From positions 1 to 64,000 of IMG/VR virus record IMGVR_UViG_3300037245_001773: DNA of 64,000 nt. The stretch is one strand, 5' to 3'. Made by a program: the position numbers and the translations under genes. Below the pieces are notes generated by a model. The model saw only the letters and a program-made list of their open reading frames with translations, was not told the DNA's origin and ran no database searches. The DNA is from a virus. Below, piece after piece: positions 27,195-57,350 of the stretch. Position 1 is the first letter of the stretch. Every line of letters starts with the position of its first letter.

Positions 27195-28490
27195 TTATAC
27201 GATCAGAGTTACATTAACGGTTAACTTCAGGACAGCCGAACCGATTCGGGCCGTTACAGGAATTGCATCAACGATACCTGCTTGCCTGTTTGATACAGAG
27301 GCGGAAAGAGCGTCAGGCATCTCAATGATGAAATCTTGAGTGTCGCTGAGAGGATTCAAGCCGGTTCTCCCGAGTTGGACATTCAGAGAACTTGCGATTG
27401 CTTTTCTGATAAGCTCAAAGCCTGAATTAGTGTATGGGATTTTCTCATTGGATATCTGAATATTGAAAATATCCGTCGCCATGTTCAATTCAATGAACAC
27501 TCTCACATTCTCATCAACTATCTGCCTTCCGGTAATTGTGAATCCGTCAGACGTTACCGAGATATTGTTTTGCGGCTCGGTATATGTGATATAAAACTTA
27601 TCTCTCAGAACTTGAATGTCTGACTCACTGTAAAGAGTCTTTGGAACTGCTACCTGACCTGCTAATGCTTTATAGGCCCATGAGCTTGTCCCGATCAGTT
27701 TTCCAAGCTGGAAACCCTCGAAAGCGGCCTCAGGGAAAAGATACCTTGCAAAGTAGTCGATTGCCCCGTTGTTAGCGTCTGCCCCGTCGCTTTCAGTTGT
27801 GGCAAATGTCCAGGTTCCATCTGTGGGAACTGATGCAACCACATGATTTCCGTTCAGGTCCGAGCCGTCTGCGCCGGAGAGAGTTACAGGATCACCGACC
27901 CTTAAACCGTGAGCCGCGTCGGTTACCGTGGCCACAAGAGAAGCGACGGTTATATCAACGTCTTCCACGTCAACCCCTGCTTCATGGTGCGCGTGAAGGT
28001 ACGTGTTTGTATTACCTGATGCATTCAAGATACTGCCAAGATCCGTTTCATCGTCCGAGTCGATCATTTCTGCATCGATTTCGATTGAAGCCCCGAACAT
28101 GATGTTTTTCCCAAGAGCCCAATCTGATATCTCTTCGAGTTCGGTTTCGTCTTTGGTCGTTGTCAGGAGCTGAAAGAATCCTCTGTCTTGCGCCCATATA
28201 TTGTCAAGCGATGCTGTGATATTTGCATCACCTGAATCAGTCCGCGCCACCTTGAAAGTTGAATTGTGGCCGGGTTGCTTGTAATGAGCGTTTGCACATT
28301 TAGCAATCTTGGTTGTGTTCGCAAAATCAGTTAACAGGTCAGTTTCAGAAGTGTAACTCTTTGTCAGGTTGGTGATTACGTCGGTTAGTAAGGGGTCGAA
28401 AACCATCGCAATATCAAGAGACGGTGCGGCTGCCACTTTATCAGCCAAGCTGACATTTACAACGACAGCATCAAAAAGAATGGAAGCCAT
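27195..28490 (-). CDS. Tail sheath protein, DUF3383-like
   Basis: 431 residues. N-terminus SILFDAVVVNVSLADKVAAAPSLDIAM and C-terminus (GLNPLSDTQDFIIEMPDALS; AGIVDAIPVTARIGSAVLKLTVNVTLIV) match the DUF3383 sheath family. Residues about 176-243 (VASLVATVTDAAHGLRVGDPV...) form an inserted immunoglobulin-like domain that would protrude from the tail surface. Confidence 0.88.
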   Translation of the reverse strand: MASILFDAVVVNVSLADKVAAAPSLDIAMVFDPLLTDVITNLTKSYTSETDLLTDFANTTKIAKCANAHYKQPGHNSTFKVARTDSGDANITASLDNIWAQDRGFFQLLTTTKDETELEEISDWALGKNIMFGASIEIDAEMIDSDDETDLGSILNASGNTNTYLHAHHEAGVDVEDVDITVASLVATVTDAAHGLRVGDPVTLSGADGSDLNGNHVVASVPTDGTWTFATTESDGADANNGAIDYFARYLFPEAAFEGFQLGKLIGTSSWAYKALAGQVAVPKTLYSESDIQVLRDKFYITYTEPQNNISVTSDGFTITGRQIVDENVRVFIELNMATDIFNIQISNEKIPYTNSGFELIRKAIASSLNVQLGRTGLNPLSDTQDFIIEMPDALSASVSNRQAGIVDAIPVTARIGSAVLKLTVNVTLIV

Positions 28491-30677: not shown

Positions 30678-31832
30678 CTATATGCCGTAAGTTTGATCAA
30701 GAGCAACCGCGTAGCGCATTGTCACGCCACCGAATTCCATCTCTGAATCAAAGTTGAAAAGAAGCCCTTTGATTGACATCGGCATCCAAATGATACTTTC
30801 GACAACGTTTGCCTCTAGGACTCGGTTGTCTTTTGGATACACAATCATCAACTGACTTGAGCCGGTTCCCTGATCAGACAGCTCGAAAATAACCACGAAA
30901 TTGCTGATTCCGTTGACTGCTGAATTGTTCAGGATGTACTGCATGATCGACGTGTCAGTACCGGACGACATACGCTCGTTTGCAAGAAAGTCGAATCTTG
31001 CTTGACTCAGAGCAACGGTCATTCCAGCCTTGCCATAAACACCGTAAGTCCTGGTTCGAACCCTGGAAACAGAATCAACGACATCGTGCATGATCTCATC
31101 GTTGGTCTTTTCTCCGCCTGGCCATGTCCTGTCAGTACCGGACGCGCCCAGCGGTGCTTGAGTATTCGTCACGCCAGTAGCGTTGATAAATCCCTCAAGT
31201 CCAAGTGCTGAGTTTCCAAGGAACATCTGAGTTTGAAGCCGTCTTGCATAACCGAGTTCAACAGCGATCAAATCTTCAGTGCTCAGAGGTACGCCAGCCA
31301 TTGCAGCCTTGCGCAACTCTTGAGCTGTGTAGCCATAACCCAAAGCCCAAGAATAAACTTTATTCGAGAACTCAACGCCTTTGGCGTTTGCCCGTGGAAC
31401 GTTCGTGATGTTTCCGACTGCGGTCAGTTCAGCAAGTCCGGTATGATCGATGGTTCTGTATGTAATCCGATCAGTTCCGGGTGTGAACGTCTTGATTGGA
31501 AGAACTTCTTTCCAATTGTCCAGGGGCTTATGGATCACCGCGTAACGGGTGGGATCGATCTCTTCCAACTGACGGGCAAAAACGAGCCCTTCATTTGCAT
31601 CGAAACGACCGGATTTCTCCATGTTTTTGACAATCTCATCATCTGTCAATTCCCTGCTGTACTGGTTTTTGAAAGCGTTGTTTTCAATCGCCGCTTTCTC
31701 ATACTCAATCACCCGAAACTGCTCCTTAAGCTGATCGAGTCTGTACGGGGTGTCTTTCCCGTCAGGATTGATAGCTTTCATAATAAAGGGGTTGGCCTTT
31801 ATCTCAGCCATCAAAGTATCTAAATATTCCAT
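30678..31832 (-). CDS. Major capsid protein, DUF2184-like
   Basis: 384 residues, HK97-fold capsid of the DUF2184 type. RYAVIHKPLDNWKEVLPIKTFTPGTDRITYRTIDHTGLAELTA and AKGVEFSNKVYSWALGYGYTAQELRKAAMAG are family blocks; the C-terminus has GGVTMRYAVALDQTYGI. It follows the protease and decoration genes as expected. Confidence 0.92.
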   Translation of the reverse strand: MEYLDTLMAEIKANPFIMKAINPDGKDTPYRLDQLKEQFRVIEYEKAAIENNAFKNQYSRELTDDEIVKNMEKSGRFDANEGLVFARQLEEIDPTRYAVIHKPLDNWKEVLPIKTFTPGTDRITYRTIDHTGLAELTAVGNITNVPRANAKGVEFSNKVYSWALGYGYTAQELRKAAMAGVPLSTEDLIAVELGYARRLQTQMFLGNSALGLEGFINATGVTNTQAPLGASGTDRTWPGGEKTNDEIMHDVVDSVSRVRTRTYGVYGKAGMTVALSQARFDFLANERMSSGTDTSIMQYILNNSAVNGISNFVVIFELSDQGTGSSQLMIVYPKDNRVLEANVVESIIWMPMSIKGLLFNFDSEMEFGGVTMRYAVALDQTYGI

Positions 31833-31841
31833 TTATCCCCC

Positions 31842-32351
31842 TTATGTTAGAGTTGAGCCAATTCCTGCCGCGATATCGAGGTAGAAAAGGACAATGTCAC
31901 CTGAGTCACCACCCTCAAGATAATATCCCGGGACTTGGCTGGCTTTGTTGGTATCCAGGTCAATTCTCCAGGTTTTGGCCGCCGAGTCGCCGGTGGTATG
32001 AGTAAAATATCCGATATCATTCTTGACCACCGTATCGCCAAGCAATACAGCGATAGTTCCCTTTCTCAGGAGCGTAATCGGCTGGTCGTCTTCGTACGAG
32101 TTGACCCCGGTGCTGAGAGCTTTCTCGTTCTGAAACTCCGACCAAATGGCGATCCCTTGGAATGTTTTCTGGGTAAAAGCAGCCTCCGCGCCTTTGACAT
32201 CAATTTCCGCCGTGCTTTGGACTGCTACCTCGCCCGGCTTCATATTGGTGTCGTCGTCAAGAATTCTGACCAGAGTTTCGGCGGTTTCGAGATCAACCAC
32301 TTGGCCGGCCACCAAACGATCACGGAATTCACTTACTGTTGTTTGTGTCAT
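31842..32351 (-). CDS. Head decoration / capsid cement protein
   Basis: 169 residues from ATG 32351, which overlaps the upstream TAA (TAATG) and has GGAGG upstream. AGQVVDLETAETLVRILDDDTNMKPGEVAVQSTAEID and FQGIAIWSEFQNEKALSTG fit cement proteins encoded before DUF2184 capsids. Would bind the outer capsid surface. Confidence 0.78.
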   Translation of the reverse strand: MTQTTVSEFRDRLVAGQVVDLETAETLVRILDDDTNMKPGEVAVQSTAEIDVKGAEAAFTQKTFQGIAIWSEFQNEKALSTGVNSYEDDQPITLLRKGTIAVLLGDTVVKNDIGYFTHTTGDSAAKTWRIDLDTNKASQVPGYYLEGGDSGDIVLFYLDIAAGIGSTLT

Positions 32352-33565
32352 TATCCGTTCCTCCATGCTCTGGCTTTATCGAATGCAGACGTTTCCCCTT
32401 CTTTGCCTGGTTCGAAACTGTGGTTATCAAGATTCTCCTTGGCGGCAATCTTCTTTTTTTCATGCTTATGATCCAGCATGTCAAACGCGGCCTTGGCGTA
32501 AACAGGATTTTCAAGATCAGCATGCTTTGACTCTGGCAATTTGCCTGCTTTCTTGACCACCCCTACAATGATTTCTTCGTTGGTCATTTTATCCGCACCA
32601 TCAAGCTTGTACTCGCTTGCTGTATTCAGATAACCTGACCTTTCCTTGACAAATTCATCCAGCTTTTCTTTCGGGATTGAATCTACATTCGCTCCCTCAA
32701 GCTCTGTATTCTTAGCTTCAAGAATATCGAACTTTGCCTTGGATGCTACTGCTTCATTTGTCAAAGAATCAAATTTCTCAACAGCTTCTTTCAGTGCAGT
32801 TGTGAAACGTTTCTCGCGCTTTTTCAGCTGAGTGATGACTCCCTTATATTCCTTAGGAAGCTCAACCTCTTCAGCATCAAGCCGAAAATCGCCAACCACT
32901 ACCTCCGGTAGCTCCCGTTGAATAATTTCCATGATTGATTCCTCTTTATGGTTTTCGCTGATTTCCTCGGAGTCGATTCTCTCAGCTTCAATGCCGTTTA
33001 TTGCGCTATTACTATCAAGACGGATACGGCATGTTTCCCCGCCCCTAGCGTTCTTCACTCTTGCTATGTGGTTGTATCTTATGTTTTTTTGACGTTTTTG
33101 AAACTCAACCCCTTCAAAGATACCCGATTCGTTTATTACATCACATCGATATCCGGCTGAAAGTTCTAAATCTTTTTCCCCTTCTATCGCTTTTATTTCT
33201 TTTCCATCAACAATTTTTAACGGTACTCTTGCATGATTTTCAACTCTAGAAACATCCTCCATTGACATTCCAAAAGTTTTATTAGCAGCGTTTTCAGGAG
33301 TAAACAGTTCAACATGATTTGATTGAGTTGTGTATGGCAGCCCCTTCAATGAATCCATTGTCTCGACAGAAAACACATCATCCGGGTGCCTTAATTCTCC
33401 CCACTCATTACCAATAGAGTCCCGGTACATGAAAACACCGGCTCTTGTCGGAGTCGAATCAACCCTCAAAAAACCGTTGCTGTCTTTTTTTGGGTCATCT
33501 ACTTTGAACGCTGGAACGTTGACCTTGAAAAAGTCATACCTGATTTGGCCCATCATTTTACTCAT
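32351..33565 (-). CDS. Prohead protease-scaffold fusion (DUF2213-like)
   Basis: 404 residues. The N-terminal 200 residues carry the DUF2213 protease pattern: LRVDSTPTRAGVFMYRD, YTTQSNHVELFTPENAANKTFGMSM and ELSAGYRCDVINESG, ending with NIRYNHIARVKNARGGETCRI (the catalytic His region). Residues 220-330 are a coiled-coil scaffold (YKGVITQLKKREKRFTTALKEAVEK). Such proteins shape the prohead and then cut themselves out. Confidence 0.85.
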   Translation of the reverse strand: MSKMMGQIRYDFFKVNVPAFKVDDPKKDSNGFLRVDSTPTRAGVFMYRDSIGNEWGELRHPDDVFSVETMDSLKGLPYTTQSNHVELFTPENAANKTFGMSMEDVSRVENHARVPLKIVDGKEIKAIEGEKDLELSAGYRCDVINESGIFEGVEFQKRQKNIRYNHIARVKNARGGETCRIRLDSNSAINGIEAERIDSEEISENHKEESIMEIIQRELPEVVVGDFRLDAEEVELPKEYKGVITQLKKREKRFTTALKEAVEKFDSLTNEAVASKAKFDILEAKNTELEGANVDSIPKEKLDEFVKERSGYLNTASEYKLDGADKMTNEEIIVGVVKKAGKLPESKHADLENPVYAKAAFDMLDHKHEKKKIAAKENLDNHSFEPGKEGETSAFDKARAWRNG

Positions 33566-33842
33566 TGATTAACTCCCGTATTCCATTGATTAGCCACTCC
33601 CAAAAGTCCTTGAATTCAGAGATATACTGACGCATGAAAAAGAAAACCAGCCCGAACAAGGCAGCAAAAACCGCTATTCTGATGATGAAATTGTCATCCC
33701 TGGTCTTTGACTCTGACTGATTTAATGTAGCTCTCTCAGCCCTTGCCAGTGCAATTTTCAACAGCATATATATGATGCCTGCCATTGCAAGGATGTTGAA
33801 ATAATACCAAACTAGCCCGGTTTGAGCGTAACTAAGAAGCAT
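33558..33842 (-). CDS. Two-helix membrane protein
   Basis: 94 residues with two hydrophobic segments, VWYYFNILAMAGIIYMLLKIAL and IIRIAVFAALFGLVFFFM, and a charged middle loop. C-terminus is amphipathic (SEFKDFWEWLINGIRELI). It overlaps the protease gene by 8 bp and the next membrane gene by 11 bp. Holin-like in size but lying inside the head module, which is unusual. Part of the inserted membrane/patatin cluster. Confidence 0.7.
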   Translation of the reverse strand: MLLSYAQTGLVWYYFNILAMAGIIYMLLKIALARAERATLNQSESKTRDDNFIIRIAVFAALFGLVFFFMRQYISEFKDFWEWLINGIRELINE

Positions 33843-34302
33843 TTTCCTTCCTCGGCATTCCGTAAAGTTTCGCGCCTGTATTCTTCTGGTTTCCCTTGAA
33901 GCATTGGGACAATATCACAGCAGACGTAATCAATATGTACCCGAATCCATTATCCCCAAATGGCGGAACAAATGACTCAGTTGGCCATAACATTGCGAAC
34001 GCTTGCCATTGCCAATAATATCCAGTAGCCCCACATATAAAAAACTTGGCTAAATAATTAGTTGTGTAGTCCACATATCTAGCTGTGAGAAAGCAAACGA
34101 TTACAAACTGCCATATGATAAGCCCAAAAGTTCCAGATTTCACGGGAACGGAACTGTCACCGAGATAACCAGTTGTTACCAGCCCGATCAAAAACCCGTT
34201 AAACAAGGCAACCATCAGAATAATATTAGGCGTTATATTATCTGTTGCGGTTCTCAGAAAATCATTTACACCCTGGAGGGCGTCATCTGCTTTGTCTTTC
34301 AT
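33832..34302 (-). CDS. Multi-pass membrane protein
   Basis: 156 residues with about four membrane helices (IILMVALFNGFLIGLVTTGYL; GLIIWQFVIVCFLTARYV; a Trp-rich segment YYWQWQAFAMLWP; GYILITSAVILSQCF). A hydrophilic N-terminus precedes. No family recognised. Second member of the inserted cluster. Confidence 0.7.
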   Translation of the reverse strand: MKDKADDALQGVNDFLRTATDNITPNIILMVALFNGFLIGLVTTGYLGDSSVPVKSGTFGLIIWQFVIVCFLTARYVDYTTNYLAKFFICGATGYYWQWQAFAMLWPTESFVPPFGDNGFGYILITSAVILSQCFKGNQKNTGAKLYGMPRKENAS

Positions 34303-34303
34303 T

Positions 34304-34477
34304 TTACCTTTTCCTCAGTGCTCTGTTTAACGTGTTGCTTAACTCTTCATCTTTTTCTATTTCGTCATGTCCGGCCTCTACATATTTCGCAATGGTTGCC
34401 AAGTCGAACTTGTTTGATCTTCTCATTGACTTGTTCGTATCATATTTATTTGATTTTGATTTCCTAACGGTTGTCAT
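34304..34477 (-). CDS. 57-residue basic hypothetical protein
   Basis: ATG 34475-34477, overlapping the upstream stop as ATGA. N-terminal third is very basic (TTVRKSKSNKYDTNKSMRRSN), C-terminal part is a charged helix (HDEIEKDEELSNTLNRALRKR). Could bind nucleic acid or lipid head groups; no homology seen. Confidence 0.65.
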   Translation of the reverse strand: MTTVRKSKSNKYDTNKSMRRSNKFDLATIAKYVEAGHDEIEKDEELSNTLNRALRKR

Positions 34478-35181
34478 TCTTTGTCGTCCTCCACAAAGTC
34501 CTCAATTACATCTGGACCGATTACACACCTAAACCGTTTTTGATCTTCTTTATTCTTGATTCTTTTGACTCTCCATGATTTAACAAAAACCGCTTCCATT
34601 TCTTCGTCTGGCAGAAACCCGTCGAAATAATCCTCACAATAATCATCGGCTGACATGCTGAAAAAAGTCGAGTGATCCAAGTTAAGTCTTGCGTTATCTT
34701 TTCCCCTCGCCGCTGATCTCATCACCATAAAATCTTGCTCATCATATATAGCGTATGCGAATATTTTCGAGAACTTTATTTTCTTGTCAAATTCAACATT
34801 GAACTTCGATTCTAAACTTCGGACTCCCTTGGTATGGAAAAAAGGGTGCATGTTTAGTTTTGTGGATTTATGTCCTGATTCTTTTGCGAATATCTTAAAG
34901 AATCCCACATAATCATCTTTTGCCCCCGCATCCGCCAATCCACCGGCAATGTCTACACTCTTTGTATAATTCATTGTGAGTGCCATCATTGCTACTGTAA
35001 AAACACCCAAGAACATAAACCTTGCCACCTGATAACCAGCCGCTTTCTTGCCGAGTTCACATATCGTGTTCAAGAGTGGATGCCTTATCAAGAAATCAGA
35101 ACGTCCTGTATCGGTGTCGAGTCTGGTCTCCTCTGTCTGATTTGTATCGCTGAATTCATCCAAATTAAATAAATTAGACAT
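34474..35181 (-). CDS. Single-pass membrane protein of the patatin cluster
   Basis: 235 residues. Residues about 1-50 are soluble and acidic; a hydrophobic helix (RFMFLGVFTVAMMALTMNY) lies near 54-72; the remaining 160 residues are soluble alpha/beta with many aromatic residues. No enzyme motif. Overlaps the patatin-like gene by 8 bp, so the pair is probably co-translated. It may anchor the partner at the membrane. Confidence 0.7.
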   Translation of the reverse strand: MSNLFNLDEFSDTNQTEETRLDTDTGRSDFLIRHPLLNTICELGKKAAGYQVARFMFLGVFTVAMMALTMNYTKSVDIAGGLADAGAKDDYVGFFKIFAKESGHKSTKLNMHPFFHTKGVRSLESKFNVEFDKKIKFSKIFAYAIYDEQDFMVMRSAARGKDNARLNLDHSTFFSMSADDYCEDYFDGFLPDEEMEAVFVKSWRVKRIKNKEDQKRFRCVIGPDVIEDFVEDDKE

Positions 35182-36376
35182 CTATCGCCCCTGACTTTTG
35201 CGCTGTTTGGATTGCCTTGTCATTTGATGCAAATTGAAAAAGTTCATCAATCGGGTTGCACTCGTATCTTGTGGATCCGCACGCTCTGGAATTATCCAGG
35301 TTGACATCATGCTTTTGTTCGTCTTTTTTGATCAGTTTGCTGCGTTCATCCAGTACCCCTGACCCCTTATCAAAAATTCTCACGGGTGCGCCGATACTTG
35401 TCACACTCAGACCAGTGTTATATTGCATGAGATAGACATCGTTATTCTTTACAATGTCCCCGTTCATAATCCCAAAACCTGTAAACATTGGCTTGGAATT
35501 GAAGAAAACAGGATCCAGCATTGCAGCACAGACAGCTATGTAAATCGGCATATCCGGAAATGTCTTTCTTGTGATTGTCATGGTCCTACGTGAAATATCC
35601 CATACCGGAATATAAACATCTTTCTGGCATTCCTTGACTGTCAGATCTCGGTCTGTTCTCCCTCCTCCAGCACTCTTTGCCTTGAAGTAATTCCGGATAA
35701 CTTTTTCCGCTTTCTTCGATTTGATTCTATCATTGTCTCGGTTCAGGAGAATGGAAGACGCTATTTCAACACCGACTTGAACGTATCCTTTTCTCACGAC
35801 ATTTAGAAAATCGCTCAGATACCACCGATTTAATTCATCTGCACTGTAACCGAGCGCACAACTGAACGCCTGTAATGAACCGAACCCGGCACCTGAAAAA
35901 ACATCAAATTCGGTTACTATTGAACCGTACCTTTCCGCGATCCTTCCTTCCAGTCTATGCTGAATTACTATCTGGCCGATTGTGCGGGTAAAATATGACT
36001 GATCGAATGAAAGCGCCTTGCCTGTAAATTTCTGGTTAAGTGTTTCCTGGCTCTTTTGAATCTCGGCCCTGAAATATTGGTTCCCCGCAATCGACTTTTT
36101 GACGGGGGGTTCATCATATTTTTTTGGTGCTGTGGTTGCTTGCTCGTCAATGATAAAATGATAACTCGCGTTCATCAGGTAGCAATCCTGAAAGGTGATT
36201 TCCGCAATGTTGTCTTCCGGTATCAGGACAATTTTAGGCGGCATTATCCCGGTTCCGGAAGTACATCTTATATATACAGGAGTACCGGCAAATTCAGATC
36301 CTACCCTGTATATTCTGCTATTCGGTATCTTGATGCGAAATTCTTGCCCTAGCTTTATCTGCTGGTTCGATTGCAT
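35174..36376 (-). CDS. Patatin-fold protein lacking catalytic motifs
   Basis: 400 residues from ATG 36376; a TTG two codons earlier is possible. Residues 1-80 are a beta-rich unrecognised domain. From about 120, ALSFDQSYFTRTIG...IVTEFDVFSGAGFGSLQAFSCALGYSADEL aligns step by step with the patatin core (LSLDGGGxRG ... FDxIxGTSxGAL...ALGYSAEEL). VYIPVWDISRR, PIYIAVCAAMLDPVFF and FTGFGIMNGDIVKNN match later patatin strands. The oxyanion loop DGGGxRG is DQSYFTR, the nucleophile elbow GxSxG is GAGFG, and the DG[G/A] catalytic Asp motif is GFG. It is therefore probably a pseudo-enzyme. Its place in a head gene cluster with membrane proteins is unexplained. Confidence 0.75.
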   Translation of the reverse strand: MQSNQQIKLGQEFRIKIPNSRIYRVGSEFAGTPVYIRCTSGTGIMPPKIVLIPEDNIAEITFQDCYLMNASYHFIIDEQATTAPKKYDEPPVKKSIAGNQYFRAEIQKSQETLNQKFTGKALSFDQSYFTRTIGQIVIQHRLEGRIAERYGSIVTEFDVFSGAGFGSLQAFSCALGYSADELNRWYLSDFLNVVRKGYVQVGVEIASSILLNRDNDRIKSKKAEKVIRNYFKAKSAGGGRTDRDLTVKECQKDVYIPVWDISRRTMTITRKTFPDMPIYIAVCAAMLDPVFFNSKPMFTGFGIMNGDIVKNNDVYLMQYNTGLSVTSIGAPVRIFDKGSGVLDERSKLIKKDEQKHDVNLDNSRACGSTRYECNPIDELFQFASNDKAIQTAQKSGAIDV

Positions 36377-36818
36377 TATCAATCTCGGTTATCATTGTTT
36401 TAATCTGGCTTTCTTCTGTAGATTCTACCAGGTAAGATAAATAGCATGCCACATTTTGATTTACCAGCGTTTCGTCTGAGAAAAAAGCCTCTTTCTGGTC
36501 ACTGTGTCTTATTCTTAAAATTCCACCGTTGACATATAGATAATGGTGACCGTCGAAAATTAGTCCTTTTGTCCTCGGTGTTATTTCGTTCAACTCTTTC
36601 ACAAAGTCCGTTACTTTCAAAGGACTTTCAAATGCCCCGGTTCCAAATAATCTGTCATTCTCGAAATATTGTGGCGGCACGCTTCTGTTGGGAGTCAGAG
36701 ATTGTTCCCTTATGTTCGTTGCCTTTAATCCATTCTGCACTGATTCCAAAAACCAAGGATTCCTTGTCGGGTTCTTTTTATCTGGTCTTTCCTTGTATGT
36801 GGTTAATAAGTTTTTCAT
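36318..36818 (-). CDS. Hypothetical protein of the patatin cluster
   Basis: 166 residues. N-terminal half is Pro/Arg/Asn-rich and probably extended (NPTRNPWFLESVQNG); the middle has strands (TKGLIFDGHHYLYVNGGILRIRHS); C-terminal helix is acidic. No family recognised. It overlaps the minor head gene by 4 bp and the patatin-like gene by about 59 bp, a long overlap for this genome. Confidence 0.65.
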   Translation of the reverse strand: MKNLLTTYKERPDKKNPTRNPWFLESVQNGLKATNIREQSLTPNRSVPPQYFENDRLFGTGAFESPLKVTDFVKELNEITPRTKGLIFDGHHYLYVNGGILRIRHSDQKEAFFSDETLVNQNVACYLSYLVESTEESQIKTMITEIDNAIEPADKARARISHQDTE

Positions 36819-37855
36819 GCTGCTTTTTTCCTCGCCTCAACAGTATCGGGATGGCTCACACCTGTTATTTCGTCATAAATTGCCTGTGGCCAACAACGAT
36901 CTTGAATATCAGTTCCGGCATGATGCCTTTCACCTGCTCTTTTTCCCTTGAAAACTGTGACCGGGGGATCATTCCACTTAATTATCACCCCTTCTAGCCG
37001 TTTATGGTCTGAATATCCGTCTGAATTTGCCAATGATCTGACCCTGCCATCCTGCCTTGTTCTCCAAATATACTCAGTAACACCGGACTTTCTTTGGCGG
37101 GCCTCTTCAATATTGGCCGTCAACTTTCCGATCTGGTCACGGGCAATTAATCTGGCTCTATTTTTTGCGTTTCCTGTCAATTCCTGAATCTTCGCTCTTG
37201 CCGTGGCTGTCAATTCGCCTTTCCGTACAGCGTCTTTGGTGATTTGCTCTATCTGAGAAAAGTATTGACCCGGGACTGTTTTGATTAAAGAGATGTTTGC
37301 CTGCAAAGAATCTTGAATAAATTCATCCACGTTTAACTGTGCCGGTAATGGCTTGGTTCCGGTCTGTCTTTCGAATTCATTAACAAATTGCGTCTCTGTT
37401 TTTTCTTTGACTCTGTTTAAAAATGGTTTCACGGTTTTATTCAATGATCTGGTAAAAATCTCTTGCCTTGGTTCCGTGTTGGGTTTTACTGATTCGCCGA
37501 AAAACATGCTCTTCATTCTTGCGATCAATGCGGCTACCAGTGTGATTCCTGCCAGTTCTTTAAATTGTACGTCTAGCCTGATTTCTTTTATAAACGGGAT
37601 GCCGATAAGGTCACAGGCTTCTTTTTTACTTATGAGACTGGTGTCGAATCGTTCTGTTTTATGGTTCGTTAATCTATCGAGTTCAGGGAGTAAGACTTTT
37701 TTTGTTATTTCATCGATTTTGTTTATCTCTTTGATGATTGCCTTTCCGAATTCCATTTCGATCATGCGATTCTCGGGGGGTTCTTTGAAAGCGCGGGTCT
37801 TTCTCCTGTTTGATAGTTGTTTTTTGATTCGCTTTCTTTGTGCTTCAGTTGGCAT
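36815..37855 (-). CDS. Phage head morphogenesis protein (Mu F / SPP1 gp7-like)
   Basis: 346 residues. The C-terminal half has the family signature: LTATARAKIQELTGNAKNRARLIARDQIGKLTANIEEARQ then GVTEYIWRTRQDGRVR, a KRLEGVIIKWNDPP loop and DIQDRCWPQAIYDEI. The N-terminal half is helical. Minor head protein, normally encoded just after the portal; here 5 kb of extra genes intervene. Confidence 0.88.
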   Translation of the reverse strand: MPTEAQRKRIKKQLSNRRKTRAFKEPPENRMIEMEFGKAIIKEINKIDEITKKVLLPELDRLTNHKTERFDTSLISKKEACDLIGIPFIKEIRLDVQFKELAGITLVAALIARMKSMFFGESVKPNTEPRQEIFTRSLNKTVKPFLNRVKEKTETQFVNEFERQTGTKPLPAQLNVDEFIQDSLQANISLIKTVPGQYFSQIEQITKDAVRKGELTATARAKIQELTGNAKNRARLIARDQIGKLTANIEEARQRKSGVTEYIWRTRQDGRVRSLANSDGYSDHKRLEGVIIKWNDPPVTVFKGKRAGERHHAGTDIQDRCWPQAIYDEITGVSHPDTVEARKKAA

Positions 37856-38681
37856 TAATGGCTCTTAATGGTTTTGTTAGTGCGTCTTCTGTTGACCACC
37901 CGCGACCAATCCTGTTGCTTATTACTTTTTTTGGTATCCCAGTTTTATTAGACCACTCCATGGCTGTCGCAGTAATTCCATTGTATGTGTGCAGGGCTGG
38001 CTTCTTTATTTGTTTTGTTATGGCATCTTCGAAGCTCATTCCCTTTCGCATTCTGCTGTCAACAGTTTCCGGCTTTATGCCGTTCCTCCTGCACCATTGT
38101 GCAAATGTCAGTGTTTGATTTTCATACGTATAAAATGTATTTGATCTTCTGTTGTTTGCCTGCTCCATTGGAGTTGCCCACTTGCAATTGTCCGGAGAGT
38201 ATCCCTTGTCGTTGTCTTCCCTTTCTATTGTCATTCCGTCCGGGACGTCTCCCATGTCTGAGTAGAAATTTTCAAACTTTGCCCACCTCTCACAGACTTT
38301 TATACCTCGGCCACCGTAGTATTTATAGTCTTTGTCATTCTCGTTGTGGCACCTATTCTTTATTTTTAGCCACCTTCTATATGACTTTGTTATTGTGCCA
38401 TTTGATGAGTGCCCGTGTGTTGTTGCCCTTTTAATCAAAGACTTAATTTTTCCGCAGCCACAACTCTTCGTGTGCCCACTTATTAAATCATTTGATGCAA
38501 CCTTTGTAATAGACCCACAATCACAAACGCACAACCACATTATTTTTTTATTTTCGTAGTCAGTTCGGTACAGAACGTCGATATCTCCAAATCTTTTGCC
38601 GGATAAAATGTATTTTAATTTTTTTCTCCTAATAGTATTAGGACCTTTCCTGGATTGTTGTAGCTCAAATAATATGCTCAT
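37845..38681 (-). CDS. Homing-type endonuclease, HNH/AP2-like family (copy 2)
   Basis: 278 residues. Zinc-ribbon CVCDCGSITKVASNDLISGHTKSCGCG, then YRRWLKIKNRCHN...YKYYGGRGIKVCERWAKFENFYSDMG and MTIEREDNDKGYSPDNCKWATPMEQANN, the same core as the copy at 8645-9328. Two further repeats of a small DNA-binding motif follow (TFAQWCRRNGIKPETVDSRM; TAMEWSNKTGIPKKVISNRI). It overlaps the minor head gene by 11 bp and likely homes into this locus. Confidence 0.88.
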   Translation of the reverse strand: MSILFELQQSRKGPNTIRRKKLKYILSGKRFGDIDVLYRTDYENKKIMWLCVCDCGSITKVASNDLISGHTKSCGCGKIKSLIKRATTHGHSSNGTITKSYRRWLKIKNRCHNENDKDYKYYGGRGIKVCERWAKFENFYSDMGDVPDGMTIEREDNDKGYSPDNCKWATPMEQANNRRSNTFYTYENQTLTFAQWCRRNGIKPETVDSRMRKGMSFEDAITKQIKKPALHTYNGITATAMEWSNKTGIPKKVISNRIGRGWSTEDALTKPLRAINAN

Positions 38682-38695: not shown

Positions 38696-39565
38696 TTACA
38701 AGTCTTTGTAATCACTAGAGGCGGCGTCGGTAATTGCTTTCTGTGCATCGCTCCCCTCAATCCCAAGCTCTGAAACCTTGAATTGAACTGTGCTCGAACG
38801 GGGTAATACCCAATAAATTCTGTTGTTTGCGGGATCGTAAGTGCCGTTTACTTTCTGTCCGCTATAGAAAACTCCACTCAACTCAGCAGGCAAGCTGATG
38901 ATTTCAGCAGTTCCAGTGAGGCTTGCAAGGCTGACAGTCGGACGTTGGCTGGAAACGAAAATTGAGACCTCATTTTCTCCCGCCCCACTACTCGGGGTAA
39001 TTACAATCGCGGCCCCGGCGTAAGTGTCGGTTGTCGTTCCGGATACGGTTAAATCTTCTGGGACTGTAAAAGAGTATTGAGGTTTAGCGAGAACAACTTT
39101 ATATGCTCCATCATCCAAGGCAAATACAACTATGCCGCTTGAATTGGTGTTTTTTGAGTCAAGCTTTACCGTTTGGGCTGCATTCCATACTTGAACTTCT
39201 ACGCCTAGAATTGGGACTGGAACAGCATCGTTAACAGTGATCGTGACAGAATTAGCACCGGGACCAGAAGAGGCTGATTCAACCCATCCACCGACACGGA
39301 AGAAACCGGAATACTTCTTTGTGGTGGCGTCCACCATCGTCCAATAGTATTCAGCGAATGCGGTCGGAGGCGTTACCAGATCAGAAAGGGGATAGTAGAA
39401 AACTCCTGTTGTGCCAATTTGAACAGCTGTTCCGGTTGTCATTGCTTCCGGAGTTGCGGACCCGTCTTTATATACAGCGACGGTTATCGCATCAAGATTG
39501 GCGAATACCCCGAGAAAGGAGTAGACTTTTGATGATGCAAATTCAGAGAGTTTTATTCTGTCCAT
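38696..39565 (-). CDS. Ig-like virion/fibre protein
   Basis: 289 residues. About 120-195 (NSVTITVNDAVPVPILGVEVQVWNAAQTVKLDSKNTNSSG...GAYKVVLAKPQYSF) is a carboxypeptidase-regulatory-like, immunoglobulin-type fold. The N-terminal part (SSKVYSFLGVFANLDAITVAVYKDG) is a second beta domain. Likely a surface-exposed virion protein; specific attachment site unknown. Confidence 0.68.
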   Translation of the reverse strand: MDRIKLSEFASSKVYSFLGVFANLDAITVAVYKDGSATPEAMTTGTAVQIGTTGVFYYPLSDLVTPPTAFAEYYWTMVDATTKKYSGFFRVGGWVESASSGPGANSVTITVNDAVPVPILGVEVQVWNAAQTVKLDSKNTNSSGIVVFALDDGAYKVVLAKPQYSFTVPEDLTVSGTTTDTYAGAAIVITPSSGAGENEVSIFVSSQRPTVSLASLTGTAEIISLPAELSGVFYSGQKVNGTYDPANNRIYWVLPRSSTVQFKVSELGIEGSDAQKAITDAASSDYKDL

Positions 39566-40752: not shown

Positions 40753-43026
40753 TTATACCCCTATCATTATCACATTATCTGGTAATGTTGCGTGGCTTGA
40801 TGTTTTCCATAATTCATTTGCAATAGCTCCAGATCCTATCTGTGTCGCTCCTGACTTCATATTCGTCAGCAATGTGGGGTTGGTAAGGTCAAGCGTTTGA
40901 TTTGGGGACCTGCCAGCCAATAAAAGGTATTGAGCGTGATCATCGTCGGCCAAACCCGCCATATCTCCGTGATCACTTACACCCGCATTAGCAAATAACT
41001 GATCAAACGCTGAAGATATTGTTGCTGTGTCCGATGATTTTTGAAATGTAAACCTTGCAGCTAATAAAGATGTTTCTGTTATTTTTGACGGTAAGGATGA
41101 ACTGGGAACCGCTTCATTGTCAGCCGCAAATTCCGAATTATGTTGAGCGCGTCCATAAACCATAACAATATGGTCATCTGGTTCAATAAAAAAGAATAAG
41201 TTGGCCCACTTGTTATTGCTTAAAGTGGTCAATGTTCCAGCATTGTCATATTGTAAATTATTCCATTGGGATGCTGCCGCTTCCTCTTGTCCTCCCGCTG
41301 AATATGTTGAAAAGGTATCTGCACCCGAAGTGTTGAAAGTGGATATGGGATATTCAGTTCTGCCCCACCAAATCGATCCTGACGTCACGGAAACATCTCT
41401 ATTAGCATCTCCTGACTGTCCGAAAATCAATCCACCTTTTCTTTTATCTCTACTTAAACCAAAGACCCGTCTGATAAATCTACCGGCCTGACCTATGCTT
41501 TCTTGGAGTCTAACTCCCAATGAAAAAACATGTTCGACAGCTCCGTTTTCTTTTGTGACTACTCCAATTTGAATTTTATCAGGAGTTTCTAAAAACTCAT
41601 CTGTGCTTAATGAGATAACGCCTGAATCATCGACGTAAACATATTGAGTAGTGTTATCTGTAACCGCTATACCTAGTGATTCTGACCACTTGAAAGACTG
41701 CAATTCAGCGTTAGGATCATTAGTTGTGCGGATAAACCCTGATCCGGCAGATACGTCAAGAGTTCCTGATCCACCATCACTTAAGATGCCACCCAGGAAG
41801 AAACCGGATGATCCTGTATTGTCTAGATACTCTTGTAATTGATCTACTGTTGGGGTGCCTGATCCTTTGGCAATAGACACCGAACTGCTTGGAACTTCAG
41901 AAAAGTTTGTACCCTTGAATGTTGGGCTTGATCCGCTGGTTACATCTTGGTCAATAAGTGAATGATCACTGCCATCTGACCCACGATGAGTATCATTAAG
42001 CGCTACGTTGGCGTGATCTGATCCGTTCCCAGATCTATGAGAATTATTTAAAACAACGTCGGAATGGTCTTTTCCGTCACTTGACCGATGAGTATCGTTT
42101 AGAGCAACGTTTGCATGGTCAGACCCATTTCCGGTTCGATGACTATTGTTCAGTACTAGGTCGGAATGATCCTTGCCATCTGAAGTTTTGTGTGTCGTAT
42201 TTAAAGCAACATCTGAGTGATCAGAACCGCTCCCCGATCTATGAGAGTTATTAAGAACTACATCTGAGTGATTCTTCCCGTCCGAACTTCGATGAGTTGT
42301 ATTTGCGTCAACATTCGTATTGGCGTTGACTCTCGCTTCAGTATAATAAAGATTCGATCCCTCCTCAACATCGTCTGTATTTTGAGTTTCCCATATTGCG
42401 TCCCCTGCCTCGCCTGAATCTTTTGTTAAATGCTGGCCTGCTGTCCCGTCTGGAGGCAGACCCAGTTTCCAATCTGACGTACCTAAAATCTTGGTAAATT
42501 CGGCAATGATCTCTTTTGCATCGATTCCAGCATGAGAGGGTAGTTTGATTTTGCCTGACTTCAATTGCTTGACAAGTTCGATAATATCTTGCTTGCGGTC
42601 TTTAATCAGTTGGGTAACGTCGATTAAATCAGCTATTTCTTTTTTGTCTCTGTCTGTCAGTGGGAGGGGTTGAGCGTCTTGACCGGGCTCTCCCTGCTCA
42701 CCGGGAATGCCTTGTTCACCATCTTTGGGTACTTCGATTTGATCAAGTACGGATTTTTGAAAGGCTTCTTTTACTTCAGGGGAAAATATTTCATCCCGAT
42801 AAAAGTCAACTCGCTTTTCATCGTCTGTGGATTTGACTTGATCTAAAAGCTGTTTGACTATTTCTGATGAATCTAACTTAGGGGTTTGGATTGAGGATTG
42901 AACGCGCGCAACTATATTGTCAATTTCAGATTGATCGAAACGTATTTTTCTTTTGTCTAACTGTTCGATTATCTCTGATATAATTTCAAACTTTAATTTT
43001 TCTCTTGATTCAGGGGTTGCTTTCAA
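40753..43026 (-). CDS. Large fibre-like virion protein with 17-residue repeats
   Basis: 757 residues. Residues 1-95 are helical and charged. Near 103-116 a collagen-like GxY run (GEQGIPGEQGEPGQ) occurs. EEGSNLYYTEARVNANTNV precedes seven 17-residue repeats (HRSSDGKDHSDVVLNNS type). The C-terminal 350 residues are beta-rich. The start overlaps the portal stop by 4 bp. Fibre-like proteins normally lie in the tail operon; encoding one right after the portal suggests a head- or neck-attached fibre. That placement is inference. Confidence 0.75.
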   Translation of the reverse strand: MKATPESREKLKFEIISEIIEQLDKRKIRFDQSEIDNIVARVQSSIQTPKLDSSEIVKQLLDQVKSTDDEKRVDFYRDEIFSPEVKEAFQKSVLDQIEVPKDGEQGIPGEQGEPGQDAQPLPLTDRDKKEIADLIDVTQLIKDRKQDIIELVKQLKSGKIKLPSHAGIDAKEIIAEFTKILGTSDWKLGLPPDGTAGQHLTKDSGEAGDAIWETQNTDDVEEGSNLYYTEARVNANTNVDANTTHRSSDGKNHSDVVLNNSHRSGSGSDHSDVALNTTHKTSDGKDHSDLVLNNSHRTGNGSDHANVALNDTHRSSDGKDHSDVVLNNSHRSGNGSDHANVALNDTHRGSDGSDHSLIDQDVTSGSSPTFKGTNFSEVPSSSVSIAKGSGTPTVDQLQEYLDNTGSSGFFLGGILSDGGSGTLDVSAGSGFIRTTNDPNAELQSFKWSESLGIAVTDNTTQYVYVDDSGVISLSTDEFLETPDKIQIGVVTKENGAVEHVFSLGVRLQESIGQAGRFIRRVFGLSRDKRKGGLIFGQSGDANRDVSVTSGSIWWGRTEYPISTFNTSGADTFSTYSAGGQEEAAASQWNNLQYDNAGTLTTLSNNKWANLFFFIEPDDHIVMVYGRAQHNSEFAADNEAVPSSSLPSKITETSLLAARFTFQKSSDTATISSAFDQLFANAGVSDHGDMAGLADDDHAQYLLLAGRSPNQTLDLTNPTLLTNMKSGATQIGSGAIANELWKTSSHATLPDNVIMIGV
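41938..42294 (-). repeat. Seven 51-bp coding repeats
   Basis: Codes seven 17-residue units in the fibre-like protein. Units alternate between HRSSDGKDHSDVVLNNS and HRSGxGSDHxxVALNDT forms, giving a 102-bp (34-residue) higher-order period. The even spacing and conserved His/Asp suggest a metal-binding solenoid or a coiled fibre shaft. Confidence 0.85.
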
Positions 43027-44771
43027 ATCTCTATTTCCTGATCTAGTTTTTTGCTGATTTCATCAAGTCCCTTCTGAATATCGTCTATCTCTTTCGCATG
43101 GTCGATCTGTTCCGGGATTTTAACGTTGACAATTGGGGCTTCTACGATTATCTGTGGTTCGAGTTTTATGATTTGGTCTTTCTTTTCTTCTGGCTTCTCT
43201 GGAATTTCCGGTGGAATGACTTGATTCTGTTTTGCGGCCTCATCACTGATGGCCTTTTCCATCTTGATGCCTTCGAGTTCTTCAGCCATTGCGTCGGCCT
43301 CTTCCGGGGTGAACTCGTCTTTCATTTCTTCCCGGGCTTTGAAATCGATGATCATAGATTCAAGGTCAACCGTGTCCTTACTGAAACGAGATATTCCGAC
43401 TTCTTCAGGACTTACAACGTTTAAATTAACGTAAATTTCATCCTTTTGAGCTACAGTGTAGGCTGTATCGGCCTTGTCTTTGTCTGATTGTTCCTGTAAT
43501 GGGTTGAATACGTATGACGGTAATTCTGTCAGCATTCCGACTGCCATATTCACAAACGTCATGAACTCATTTAACCATGGCCTGAGTTGAATCTCTTGTT
43601 TTGAGTGGATCCCATTGAAATATGTTCTAGTGTCTGATTCAGAAGATGTTCCCCCTAGATTGCCTGACTCAGAAGAGAAAAATCTTGATTTGGGGATACT
43701 TGCGGCCCCGCATATTGCCTCTGTGTACCTGTCCCATAGGTCGGCAAGACCGGTTATTGGCGTTCCTTTGCGCTCCATTTTCTCTGAATCGGCATCATAC
43801 ACATTGAGACGGTTCGACGTCATATTAAAATGAGTCATAGCCAAGCGGTCAAGTATATAGTCAGGGTCGCTTCCGGTCATCACTTTTTCTGCCAGGCCCT
43901 TCATTCCGAGATAATCCTGGGTGAAGGTTTCCATTGTGCTGTTGGATTCCGTGACACAGATACCATAGTCTCTCAGAGCTGTATAAACTGCCTGCAGCTC
44001 TGAATCATCCCACCCTCTGTTGAGAGTACGTGGTGTTTGAGTGGTGAAACGTCCGTCCATGCGGATAAGTCTGGATTCGTGAACGTTCAGCGTCTTGCCG
44101 CCTGCGGGTTCCCTGATAATGACTTGGTAATGTTCAGGTTGTAACCATTTGGGGTCGTTTACGTCTTGATACCATGTAACAGGGATTGCAAACCATGCCG
44201 GAACCTGCCTAACCCACCTGATTTCTGAGACTTGATTTTCATTGAGAGGTTCCCAGAAATCATCAGGACCGCTAACGTCATCAAAATTAAACACGGTCAC
44301 AGAACCACCGGACGCGCGCGCGAGGGCTATGGACTGGAAAGCTGTTTGCCATAACTTGAACTGCTCATTCAGGAGATCATCGAAGTCTTCTACCTCTTTT
44401 TGGATTTTTATTTGATCTGTGGCTTCTTTTTCTTCACCTTCTTTTGATTCGTCGTCGTCGTTGTGCTTGTATGAGATACCATTGCGGGTCATGTCTTCGC
44501 TCGGCGCGTCTATAATTTTTCTAGAAACCCAATCAGACTGGTAAAGATCTTCTTGTTGTACGGTGTCTACTTTTGGAATGCCGGTGTATTGTGAGTTTGC
44601 CACGGGATGTTGGGCGCGCGTTCCAAATCCGGTTGATGGATTGGTCCATGCGTCCATTCTTTTGGAACGTGGGATTCTTAAGGCTGGGTCGATGTCTTTG
44701 AGCGGTTTTAGGTCGTAACCCTTTGAGGCTAACAGTAATCTTTCGTCTGCGAATGCGTTGGATTGCGCCAT
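43023..44771 (-). CDS. Portal protein, DUF1073-like
   Basis: 582 residues. LYQSDWVSRKIIDAPSEDMTRNGI, QSIALARASGGSVTVFNFDD and AICGAASIPKSRFFSSESGNLGGTSSESDTRTYFNGIHSKQEIQLRPWL are DUF1073 family features. C-terminal tail is acidic with a helix. Would form the dodecameric vertex through which DNA passes. Upstream promoter and terminator isolate it from the accessory genes. Confidence 0.9.
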   Translation of the reverse strand: MAQSNAFADERLLLASKGYDLKPLKDIDPALRIPRSKRMDAWTNPSTGFGTRAQHPVANSQYTGIPKVDTVQQEDLYQSDWVSRKIIDAPSEDMTRNGISYKHNDDDESKEGEEKEATDQIKIQKEVEDFDDLLNEQFKLWQTAFQSIALARASGGSVTVFNFDDVSGPDDFWEPLNENQVSEIRWVRQVPAWFAIPVTWYQDVNDPKWLQPEHYQVIIREPAGGKTLNVHESRLIRMDGRFTTQTPRTLNRGWDDSELQAVYTALRDYGICVTESNSTMETFTQDYLGMKGLAEKVMTGSDPDYILDRLAMTHFNMTSNRLNVYDADSEKMERKGTPITGLADLWDRYTEAICGAASIPKSRFFSSESGNLGGTSSESDTRTYFNGIHSKQEIQLRPWLNEFMTFVNMAVGMLTELPSYVFNPLQEQSDKDKADTAYTVAQKDEIYVNLNVVSPEEVGISRFSKDTVDLESMIIDFKAREEMKDEFTPEEADAMAEELEGIKMEKAISDEAAKQNQVIPPEIPEKPEEKKDQIIKLEPQIIVEAPIVNVKIPEQIDHAKEIDDIQKGLDEISKKLDQEIEI

Positions 44772-45767: not shown

Positions 45768-46187
45768 TTATTTATCAACCGCCTTATGAGTAAGCAGACC
45801 GATTGCGAAAGGAAATAGCAGAATAAACTGAAGCGGTATTTTGTGAATATACGCCAAATAGGAGCACACAAAGCAAACGACAGGTAATGCCCAACCGTGG
45901 GTAAACCCTCTATGTTTGTCTGAGCTGAAGGCCATATATACGATGCCCGTCACCGCTGAATGTCTGTCTTTCCCGTACCACATAAGCAGAGCCGCGATGA
46001 TAATTCCAGCCCATGCGAACATCCTTGACGGTATACTTCCGGTATCGATATCGCTTGCCAGGGAACCGATTACAGTCACCCCTGCAAACGCTAATCCTGC
46101 AACTGGATTCTTTGTGATGTACCAGGCAGTTGCTCCGGTTATTAGTCCGGTTGCGGTTCCTGCTAATGCGTGCGCTCGAAAATTCAC
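45768..46187 (-). CDS. YdjM-like membrane-bound metal-dependent hydrolase
   Basis: 139 residues. HALAGTATG at the N-terminus, D46-x-D48 (SLASDIDTGSIPSR) and HRGFTHGW (92-99) are the His/Asp motifs of the LexA-regulated YdjM/DUF457 membrane hydrolase family. Four membrane segments. In phages the role is unclear; membrane modification is an inference. Confidence 0.8.
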   Translation of the reverse strand: MNFRAHALAGTATGLITGATAWYITKNPVAGLAFAGVTVIGSLASDIDTGSIPSRMFAWAGIIIAALLMWYGKDRHSAVTGIVYMAFSSDKHRGFTHGWALPVVCFVCSYLAYIHKIPLQFILLFPFAIGLLTHKAVDK

Positions 46188-46702: not shown

Positions 46703-47383
46703 TTACATCCACCCCTTTAATCTTTCAATAATCGTTAATTGTCTGACAGGCTTCACACCTAACGCTTTCATGTTCCGGATGATGTGTTTGACTGCCATGA
46801 TTTTATTATAATAGTTTTGCGTCTCCGATGGCAAGGTGGATTTGCCTAATAGCCACGATTTTACTCGACTGGCTCCGCAGTTATAAGCGAGTATGGATAA
46901 CTTGGCTGTTTCTTTGTGGTATCTGAATTGCTTGAATAGGATCCCCATATGTTTTGCGCCGAGTCGGGTGTTTATCACTGGATCTTTGCCGTACTTCAAT
47001 ATTTTGGCCGGTGTGGGTACCATTGTGAATGTTTGGCCCATGATTGTCTTCTCTTTGGTCATGTAATGCCGAATATTGAAGGGCATGAGCTGCCATAAGC
47101 CGATTGCGTTTGATCTGCTGATAGCGTCAGGCTTGAATGATGATTCCACAGCTGGAACAGCGATCAACCATCTCGGCAAGTCTTCTTTGTCCAGGTATTT
47201 GAACATCATTTTCGAGTAGCCCACCATGCGCCCGAGAATTAATTCCAGGTCTTGCTTGCAAGCTCGGTTCTTTTCAAGGGTTGTGCAATCTCTGAGATAA
47301 AAATCTGTCCATTGTTCGATGCTGAAAACGGTTGCATTTAGATGGAATGGAATGAGCAAAAAAAGAATGATCAAGATTCTCAT
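46703..47383 (-). CDS. Lytic transglycosylase (SLT domain)
   Basis: 226 residues with a signal peptide (MRILIILFLLIPFHLNATVF). The SLT fold is plain: AVPAVESSFKP (catalytic E80), SNAIGLWQLMP (91-101) and LAYNCGASRVKSWL. Cleaves peptidoglycan glycan strands. Exported by signal, it may act as the lysis enzyme or during entry; it is near a three-span membrane protein (47955-48188) that could serve as holin. Confidence 0.88.
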   Translation of the reverse strand: MRILIILFLLIPFHLNATVFSIEQWTDFYLRDCTTLEKNRACKQDLELILGRMVGYSKMMFKYLDKEDLPRWLIAVPAVESSFKPDAISRSNAIGLWQLMPFNIRHYMTKEKTIMGQTFTMVPTPAKILKYGKDPVINTRLGAKHMGILFKQFRYHKETAKLSILAYNCGASRVKSWLLGKSTLPSETQNYYNKIMAVKHIIRNMKALGVKPVRQLTIIERLKGWM

Positions 47384-55748: not shown

Positions 55749-57350
55749 TTATCGATTCCGACGACGACTCAAAGCCTCAAGCATGGTTATTTCAGTGTTG
55801 ATGTGCTCCGCTAATCCACTGACCGCGTCAGGTGCGTCATCATGAGCGTTTCCGCCTTCTTTCGAGTATTTCATAAGGGCCTCTGAGAAACCAGTCCAAT
55901 GTTTGTTTCTGGTTCTCCAATCAGCCGGAAAATAAACATACTTCATAACCGTGTTCGAATTCGCGTTGATCCTGGCGTTCTTATTCTCTGACTGGTGAAA
56001 TGACTCGATGTAAATCTTTTCCTTTGGGTAGTTGGCCCTTATAGCGTTCTTAACATTCGTAGCGTAATACCCCCCGCCTGCCTGGGACTCTACTTTTACA
56101 TTCACGCTGTTCTGGATATTATTCTGAACCAGAAAATCAACCATCATTTCTTCGGTTACTTCGAGACCTTCCTGAGTATAAAGAACGTCTAAGATATATG
56201 CCTTTTTAATTGGTATCCCGAATGCATCCTTACCGTATTTGATCCCTCCGAATGGAGAGCACAGAAAATCAGACCCCATATCAGCCGTATCGATATAGCA
56301 AAACATCTCATCAAATGTTTCTGGCTGTTCTTCTGCAGTATAGAAATTAAAAGAGGTATACAGCTTCCCGGCCATTCCTAATCGCTGGCACAGATAGTTT
56401 CCGGATAGGATAATGGGATCCAGTCTCGATGTCAGAATATCAAACGCTCTTTTGTCCAGGATATCTTCACACAGCATTCCCTGGGTTTCAGTGTAGGCTT
56501 TGCAATTGAATATTTTTATAATCTCTCCAGAGTCAACCGCACCTTTAATTATTCTATCTCCCGGGTCCCCTTCTATCCATGGGGTCATTACCAGGATTTG
56601 TTTTCTCGGTTTTTCGAGACGTGACAGCCATGAATTCGAATATGCATTCCAGACCTTATCAAGATGGTTTTCATTAAATGCTTCAAGACTTCCTTTGATC
56701 GGGTCGTCGATTATGATTAAGTTTCCACCCTTACCCATAATTCCTGCCATGATACCAGCGCCAGTATATGACAAAAATGTACCCTCAAGTGCCCACCTTT
56801 CTTTCGATCTGTCACCGTGTTTGGTTCTGGTTTCCGGGAATATGTCAGGGTAGATAATATCAAAAGGTTTTATTCTGACTTCCTCGATTCCGTCCCTTAC
56901 ATACTGGCTGAATTCATTTGCTAGTTTTGAATTATAAGACGCCGTGATCATGATCTGTTTAGGATCTTGTCCTAAAATCCAGCACTCGAAATTGATTAAC
57001 GAATGGGATTTATGGTGCCGGGGCGGAACTTCTACAATCAAGATATCTGTTCCGGACGTATCGACCGTGATTAATGTTTTGTCGTTTTGATCTTCAAGTT
57101 CTACTTTAATTGTGCATTGTGACAGGTCAAGTAATTCATGGTGCTCGATTGGTAGGTTTGATAGATAGCTGACTGGCTCATCCTGGTAGAACGACTGTAG
57201 GCAGAGTGATAGGATTATCAGGTAAGTTCTGTCTTCTGTGTAGTCTTGCGGGGCTGTGATTTTTTGGAATTCCCATAAACTCTCTCTTGCCGCGAATATT
57301 TGATCAAGTCTTTCAAGCTCAAGGAGTTCTCTTTCTTCGGCTTCATTCAT
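55749..57350 (-). CDS. Terminase large subunit
   Basis: 533 residues. Walker A VPPRHHKS (about 108-115), Walker B NLIIIDDP (210-217), coupling TPW (256-258). Nuclease: Asp in CYIDTADMGSD (near 354), KVESQAGGGYYA and HDDAPDAVSGLAEH (near 510). Length suits the family. It cuts and pumps DNA through the portal using ATP. Overlaps the small subunit by 4 bp. Confidence 0.93.
   Translation of the reverse strand: MNEAEERELLELERLDQIFAARESLWEFQKITAPQDYTEDRTYLIILSLCLQSFYQDEPVSYLSNLPIEHHELLDLSQCTIKVELEDQNDKTLITVDTSGTDILIVEVPPRHHKSHSLINFECWILGQDPKQIMITASYNSKLANEFSQYVRDGIEEVRIKPFDIIYPDIFPETRTKHGDRSKERWALEGTFLSYTGAGIMAGIMGKGGNLIIIDDPIKGSLEAFNENHLDKVWNAYSNSWLSRLEKPRKQILVMTPWIEGDPGDRIIKGAVDSGEIIKIFNCKAYTETQGMLCEDILDKRAFDILTSRLDPIILSGNYLCQRLGMAGKLYTSFNFYTAEEQPETFDEMFCYIDTADMGSDFLCSPFGGIKYGKDAFGIPIKKAYILDVLYTQEGLEVTEEMMVDFLVQNNIQNSVNVKVESQAGGGYYATNVKNAIRANYPKEKIYIESFHQSENKNARINANSNTVMKYVYFPADWRTRNKHWTGFSEALMKYSKEGGNAHDDAPDAVSGLAEHINTEITMLEALSRRRNR

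What the first reader, a model, noticed from the sequence alone, without database searches (positions are those of the whole stretch)
33558..36818. Membrane-plus-dead-patatin cluster inserted in the head genes
Six genes lie between the minor head protein (36815-37855) and the DUF2213 protease (32351-33565), where related phages usually run directly on. One encodes a protein whose second half follows the patatin core strand by strand, but with all three catalytic signatures changed: oxyanion loop DGGGxRG to DQSYFTR, nucleophile elbow GxSxG to GAGFG, and DG[G/A] to GFG. It also carries an unfamiliar N-terminal beta domain. Its partners are three membrane proteins (33558-33842, 33832-34302, 34474-35181), a 57-residue basic protein and an unknown 166-residue protein, all coupled by overlaps. 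A pseudo-phospholipase in a membrane cluster could be a decoy or inhibitor for bacterial patatin effectors such as CBASS CapV, a lipid-binding virion part, or a superinfection-exclusion unit. Which is correct is inference.
Basis: partly seen in the sequence, partly recalled or inferred. Interest (0 to 1): 0.82.

Follow-up and report, generated by a model that had tools for sequence, protein, structure and literature searches.

The report
Dead patatin module in phage head operon
An uncultured phage and its relatives carry, among their head-building genes, a conserved five-gene set built around a lipase-shaped protein that has lost every catalytic signature, together with three membrane proteins; no phage in the collection searched has it, and keeping a dead lipase this carefully points to a new non-enzymatic membrane job in the phage life cycle.

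Summary
Window 35174-36376 (-) encodes a 400-aa protein whose residues ~120-320 are a divergent patatin (PNPLA) domain: Pfam and NCBIfam matches, a profile-profile match, and a low-confidence AlphaFold model whose patatin matches stand clear of unrelated folds. Nearest are CBASS phospholipases CapV/CapE. The loss is ancient, not decay: all five lineages found are dead in the same way, dN/dS is ~0.07, close to the adjacent minor head gene, and the ex-catalytic loops are enriched in invariant residues. Five genes (166-aa, pseudo-patatin, three membrane proteins) stay together just upstream of the protease wherever contigs span the region, and co-diverge with head genes. The 57-aa gene is not part of this set. 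No relative was found among 50,697 phage records. Best reading, partly inferred: a non-enzymatic, membrane-docking module of head assembly or genome delivery. A CBASS decoy and a rebuilt active site remain open. Function, host and virion presence are untested.

The parts
36318..36818 (-). 166-aa protein of unknown family, first gene of the module
   Evidence: Homologs at the same place in L002, L003, L009, L028, L029 (36-84% identity); no Pfam or PDB relative
35174..36376 (-). Pseudo-patatin, 400 aa: N-terminal domain of unassigned fold (aa 1-95) and dead patatin domain (about aa 120-320)
   Evidence: Pfam, NCBIfam, profile and fold matches; dead in five lineages; dN/dS ~0.07
35984..36010 (-). 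Former oxyanion loop, aa 123-131 SFDQSYFTR (in place of SLDGGGxRG)
35879..35893 (-). Former nucleophile elbow, aa 162-166 GAGFG (Ser replaced by Gly164)
35456..35464 (-). Former catalytic-Asp motif, aa 305-307 NGD (Asp replaced by Asn305)
34474..35181 (-). 235-aa protein with one TM segment near aa 50-70 and a C-terminal soluble part
   Evidence: Homologs in L002, L028, L029; hydropathy; no known family
33832..34302 (-). 156-aa multi-TM protein
   Evidence: Homologs in L002, L028, L029; hydropathy; no known family
33558..33842 (-). 94-aa two-TM protein, overlaps the protease start
   Evidence: Homologs in L002, L028, L029; hydropathy
34304..34477 (-). 57-aa basic protein in a variable slot, not a module member
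   Evidence: No counterpart listed in L002 or L029; an 88-aa DUF6527 protein sits in the slot in L028

Best explanation
The five genes at 33558-36818 (without the 57-aa gene) are a core, apparently vertically inherited part of this clade's head operon. The central protein is a patatin-fold pseudoenzyme: it keeps the fold and a strongly conserved pocket but lacks the Ser/Asp dyad and the oxyanion glycines. Most likely (inferred) it no longer cuts lipid but uses the remodelled pocket to hold a lipid head group or a partner protein at the inner membrane, where the three co-encoded membrane proteins form its platform. That complex would serve head morphogenesis (a membrane-docked start of prohead assembly, as known for the T4 portal with gp40) or be packaged and delivered with the DNA. 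Shown: homology, loss of catalytic residues, purifying selection, conserved order, TM segments. Inferred: binding, complex formation, and the stage at which it acts.
For: Patatin homology. Same loss in five lineages, ex-catalytic loops enriched in invariant residues, 27 of 43 against 65 of 233, p ~1e-7. dN/dS 0.067-0.073, minor head 0.038-0.065. Conserved order directly upstream of the protease and identities to the distant relatives of 31-44%, near the 38-52% of head genes. T4 prohead assembly starts on the inner membrane with a phage chaperone, gp40 (PMC9958956). A catalytically inactive S64A version of CapV Q329R keeps its phenotype, suggesting a scaffold role of the fold (PMC9095652).
Against: No virion, expression or binding data; no host known. 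Partners have no known family. Most myophages build heads without such a module. Only five lineages. Position in the head operon alone does not prove a head function.
Confidence: 0.42

Rival explanations
1. Anti-defence decoy: a captured, inactivated CapV/CapE-like effector that binds the cyclic nucleotide as a sponge, or enters CapV/CapE filaments and poisons them, so that patatin effectors of CBASS cannot attack the membrane.
For: Nearest known patatins are CBASS effectors: NCBIfam CBASS_lipase, best profile score to a patatin next to a nucleotidyltransferase gene; CapV and CapE are solved as ligand-bound filaments (titles).
Against: Match confined to the core (about positions 22-199 of a 340-column profile), the C-terminal part of CapV is not matched. 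Fixed in all five lineages and co-diverging with head genes, unlike an accessory gene. Does not explain three conserved membrane partners.
Confidence: 0.2
2. Rebuilt active site: the old dyad was replaced by another set of conserved residues (for example D125, S127, D307, or C250), so the protein is an enzyme of changed chemistry, perhaps on lipids.
For: SFDQSYF and GD..KNN are invariant in all five lineages and the ex-catalytic loops are the most constrained region.
Against: No known patatin uses such residues as far as known to me; invariance is also expected for a binding pocket; the low-confidence model cannot place side chains.
Confidence: 0.13
3. Superinfection exclusion or membrane protection: the membrane proteins and pseudo-patatin alter the host membrane to block a second phage or to shield it from lipases.
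For: Three membrane proteins of the module.
Against: Position inside the late head operon and head-like conservation; no similarity to a known exclusion protein was found in Pfam, PHROGs or NCBIfam.
Confidence: 0.1
4. Decayed or chance feature: a broken patatin gene or a spurious resemblance.
For: In the window protein alone the Pfam score is below the curated cut-off.
Against: Independent sequence, profile and fold matches; dN/dS ~0.07; identical loss across deep divergence.
Confidence: 0.02

Closest known systems
CBASS patatin phospholipases CapV and CapE (NF041079; PDB 8zr9, 9kej, 9kh6, 9ion, 9iop)
   Same: Patatin core fold; nearest family by sequence and among the top matches of the model
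   Different: Phage protein lacks Ser/Asp dyad and oxyanion glycines, has an extra N-terminal domain, no matched CapV C-terminal part, no adjacent nucleotidyltransferase gene
Catalytically active patatins (potato patatin, RssA, Wolbachia phage WO patatin)
   Same: Same superfamily; another phage (WO) also carries a patatin gene
   Different: They keep the catalytic motifs in the proteins checked (for RssA only DG[G/A] was found by the pattern used); WO patatin is not a relative at detectable level
T4 membrane-bound prohead initiator (gp20 portal with gp40 chaperone)
   Same: Precedent for a head-assembly step on the inner membrane that needs a phage factor (PMC9958956)
   Different: No sequence relation found or claimed; no patatin-like part in that step

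Membership tests
Patatin (PNPLA) superfamily, by homology | Sequence similarity over the patatin core | tested here: met
   Pfam 9.6e-6 and 1.8e-5 in relatives (below the curated cut-off), profile-profile probability 95.6%, shuffles lower
Patatin (PNPLA) superfamily, by homology | Patatin fold | tested here: inconclusive
   Low-confidence model (pLDDT 42) whose ten best PDB entries are all patatins, Z 5.9-7.6, next 2.3
Patatin phospholipase (active enzyme) | GxSxG nucleophile elbow | tested here: not met
   GAGFG or GAGVG in all five lineages
Patatin phospholipase (active enzyme) | DG[G/A] catalytic Asp | tested here: not met
   NGD or GGD in all five lineages
Patatin phospholipase (active enzyme) | GGGx[K/R]G oxyanion motif | tested here: not met
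   Replaced by SFDQSYFxR
CBASS effector CapV/CapE | Gene next to a CD-NTase | tested here: not met
   Neighbours are head genes and membrane proteins
CBASS effector CapV/CapE | Cyclic-nucleotide binding | not testable with these tools
   Needs binding assay
Phage virion or head-assembly protein | Presence in particles, or a head defect when removed | not testable with these tools
   No isolate known here; inference rests on operon position, selection and conserved order

The most novel reading that the evidence does not exclude
A previously undescribed phage membrane machine, encoded within the head operon, that uses a patatin-fold pseudoenzyme and three membrane proteins to couple head assembly or genome delivery to the host membrane, possibly derived from a captured CBASS phospholipase turned from killer into scaffold.
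Probability: 0.28. Interest if true: 0.85.

Novelty: new variant of a known kind. Interest (0 to 1): 0.64.

Why it matters
A lipase fold with every catalytic signature lost, yet conserved about as tightly as a head gene, points to a non-enzymatic membrane task in phage assembly or entry that was not found described in the papers searched here. If it descends from a CBASS effector, it would be a case of a phage turning a bacterial killer protein into a part of its own. It also offers concrete residues (SFDQSYF, GAGFG, NGD) to test.

Tried and rejected
AlphaFold with the three close homologs failed (mean pLDDT 28); a partly usable core appeared only for residues 96-400 with two distant homologs added, so the N-terminal domain (aa 1-95) has no fold assignment. 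Foldseek against the PDB gave nothing significant on its own (best E 0.3); against viral models the best rows are patatins, E 6.5e-3 at best. Sequence searches of the PDB with the protein or its profiles gave only chance hits. Two scans of genome contigs found no relative (they need exact short peptides, so distant relatives would be missed). No match or only chance-level matches among phages and plasmids. Sampling bacterial genomes around a host was not possible, as no genome handle with kinship was at hand. A lysis-cassette reading was dropped: an SLT transglycosylase lies elsewhere (46703-47374) and the module shows no lysis-type enzyme. Decay was rejected on dN/dS and conserved loss. Ligand-binding residues of CapV could not be compared, as no structure paper describing them was found in the library. 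Paper searches for a phage pseudo-patatin found none.

Full report
Observation. Successive genes overlap by 4, 59, 8, 4, -1, 11 and 8 bp. The surroundings are those of a contractile-tail phage: portal 43023-44771, a virion structural protein (phrog_563) 31842-32351, major head protein 30678-31832, sheath 27195-28490, terminase 55749-57350. The window is part of a 72,208-base virus record.

Patatin identity. The window protein matches Pfam Patatin at E 0.0011, below the curated cut-off; the best of the three close members reaches 1.8e-5 and the distant relative L029 9.6e-6, 26.4 bits against a cut-off of 27.7. NCBIfam's best family is CBASS_lipase, 2.2e-5 at best. A profile made from twelve CapV, patatin and RssA proteins scores the window protein at 18.4 bits; 3000 shuffled copies of residues 96-400 reach at most 8.6. 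Profile-profile comparison gives 95.6% probability over 165 columns, residues 130-316 of the window protein. A template-free AlphaFold model of residues 96-400 from five phage sequences is of low confidence (mean pLDDT 42; 38 residues at 70-90, 53 at 50-70), yet the ten PDB entries at Z 5.9 to 7.6 are all patatin-fold (AbCapV 7.6, VipD 7.3, CapE 7.0, patatin 6.0) and the next row is at 2.3. Z below 8 alone would prove little; it agrees with the sequence evidence.

Catalytic residues. The alignments put GTSTG opposite G162-A-G-F-G166 (Ser to Gly164) and DGG..ANN opposite N305-G-D-I-V-K-N-N (Asp to Asn305). The oxyanion motif (SLDGGGAKG in the Sinorhizobium protein) stands opposite SFDQSYFTR; this pairing of the loop is by eye from the edge of the alignment. 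No GxSxG or DG[G/A] occurs anywhere in the five phage proteins; DG[G/A] was found in all twelve reference proteins and GxSxG in ten of them with the pattern used.

Conserved loss. Scans of viral contigs gave L001 (identical), L002 and L003 (84% and 82%) and, with a core alignment, L028 and L029 (43% and 39%). All are dead in the same way. The three ex-catalytic loops, as I bounded them, hold 27 invariant positions of 43, against 65 of 233 in the core (hypergeometric p ~1e-7). dN/dS among the close members is 0.067-0.073, next to 0.038-0.065 for the minor head gene (synonymous sites are near saturation, so these values are rough).

Module. In the window, L002, L028 and L029 the order is 166-aa protein, pseudo-patatin, one-TM protein, multi-TM protein, two-TM protein, protease; L003 shows the first two before its contig ends. 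Identities between window and L028/L029 are 31-44% for the five module proteins and 38-52% for minor head, protease, the phrog_563 protein and major head, so the set appears to have diverged together with the head genes. The 57-aa gene is not conserved. Accessory genes vary at two slots: between minor head and the 166-aa gene (180-aa in L002, 102-aa in L003, about 5 kb with opposite-strand genes in L028, none in the window) and between the one-TM and multi-TM genes (57-aa in the window, an 88-aa DUF6527 protein in L028). More distant phages lack the module: Vibrio phage pA2SJ1 runs from minor head straight to protease; pOW20-A, MyoSmar and L030 have other small genes there; a profile search of these records finds nothing. 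tblastn against 50,697 phage records finds no relative of the pseudo-patatin (chance-level hits with the L029 query), and the multi-TM and 166-aa proteins give only chance-level hits.

Mechanism. Best reading: a pseudoenzyme whose pocket binds a lipid head group or a partner, working with three membrane proteins at the inner membrane in head assembly or delivery. The T4 prohead initiator on the inner membrane is the nearest functional precedent (PMC9958956), and the phenotype of CapV Q329R that persists without the catalytic serine (PMC9095652) shows that a patatin domain may act without catalysis. The step from conserved module to this function is inference. The decoy reading is kept at 0.2 and a rebuilt active site at 0.13.

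Limits. Five lineages, two of them distant; no host, expression or virion data; a structure of low confidence; an unassigned N-terminal domain; origin from a CBASS effector suggested only by ranking of similarity.

Noticed in passing
L009:3021-5093 and L029:4824-6911: The minor head protein carries an intein-like Hint domain at the same site (after DIQ) in both, weak Pfam Hint_2/Intein_splicing matches. Inside it, on the opposite strand, a conserved 270/282-aa ORF with a Cys-rich start and a nuclease-like stretch (69% identity, pN 0.18, pS 0.62) overlaps a sense frame without any stop; possibly an antisense homing endonuclease.
   Followed up: partly
L002:895-1437, L003:4168-4476, L028:2272-7232, L028:9458-9724; window 34304-34477: Two variable cargo slots at the edges of or inside the module, filled differently in each lineage (180 aa, 102 aa, about 5 kb, DUF6527 protein, 57 aa).
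   Followed up: partly
window 37845-38681: HNH endonuclease (phrog_374, E 3e-68) directly upstream of the minor head gene.
   Followed up: no
window 45768-46187: YdjM inner-membrane family protein (Pfam E 2.6e-9), not far from an SLT transglycosylase at 46703-47374.
   Followed up: no
window 38696-39565: 289-aa protein with weak Ig-like or carboxypeptidase-regulatory-like matches upstream in the head region, conserved in L003 (79%) and L029 (44%).
   Followed up: no
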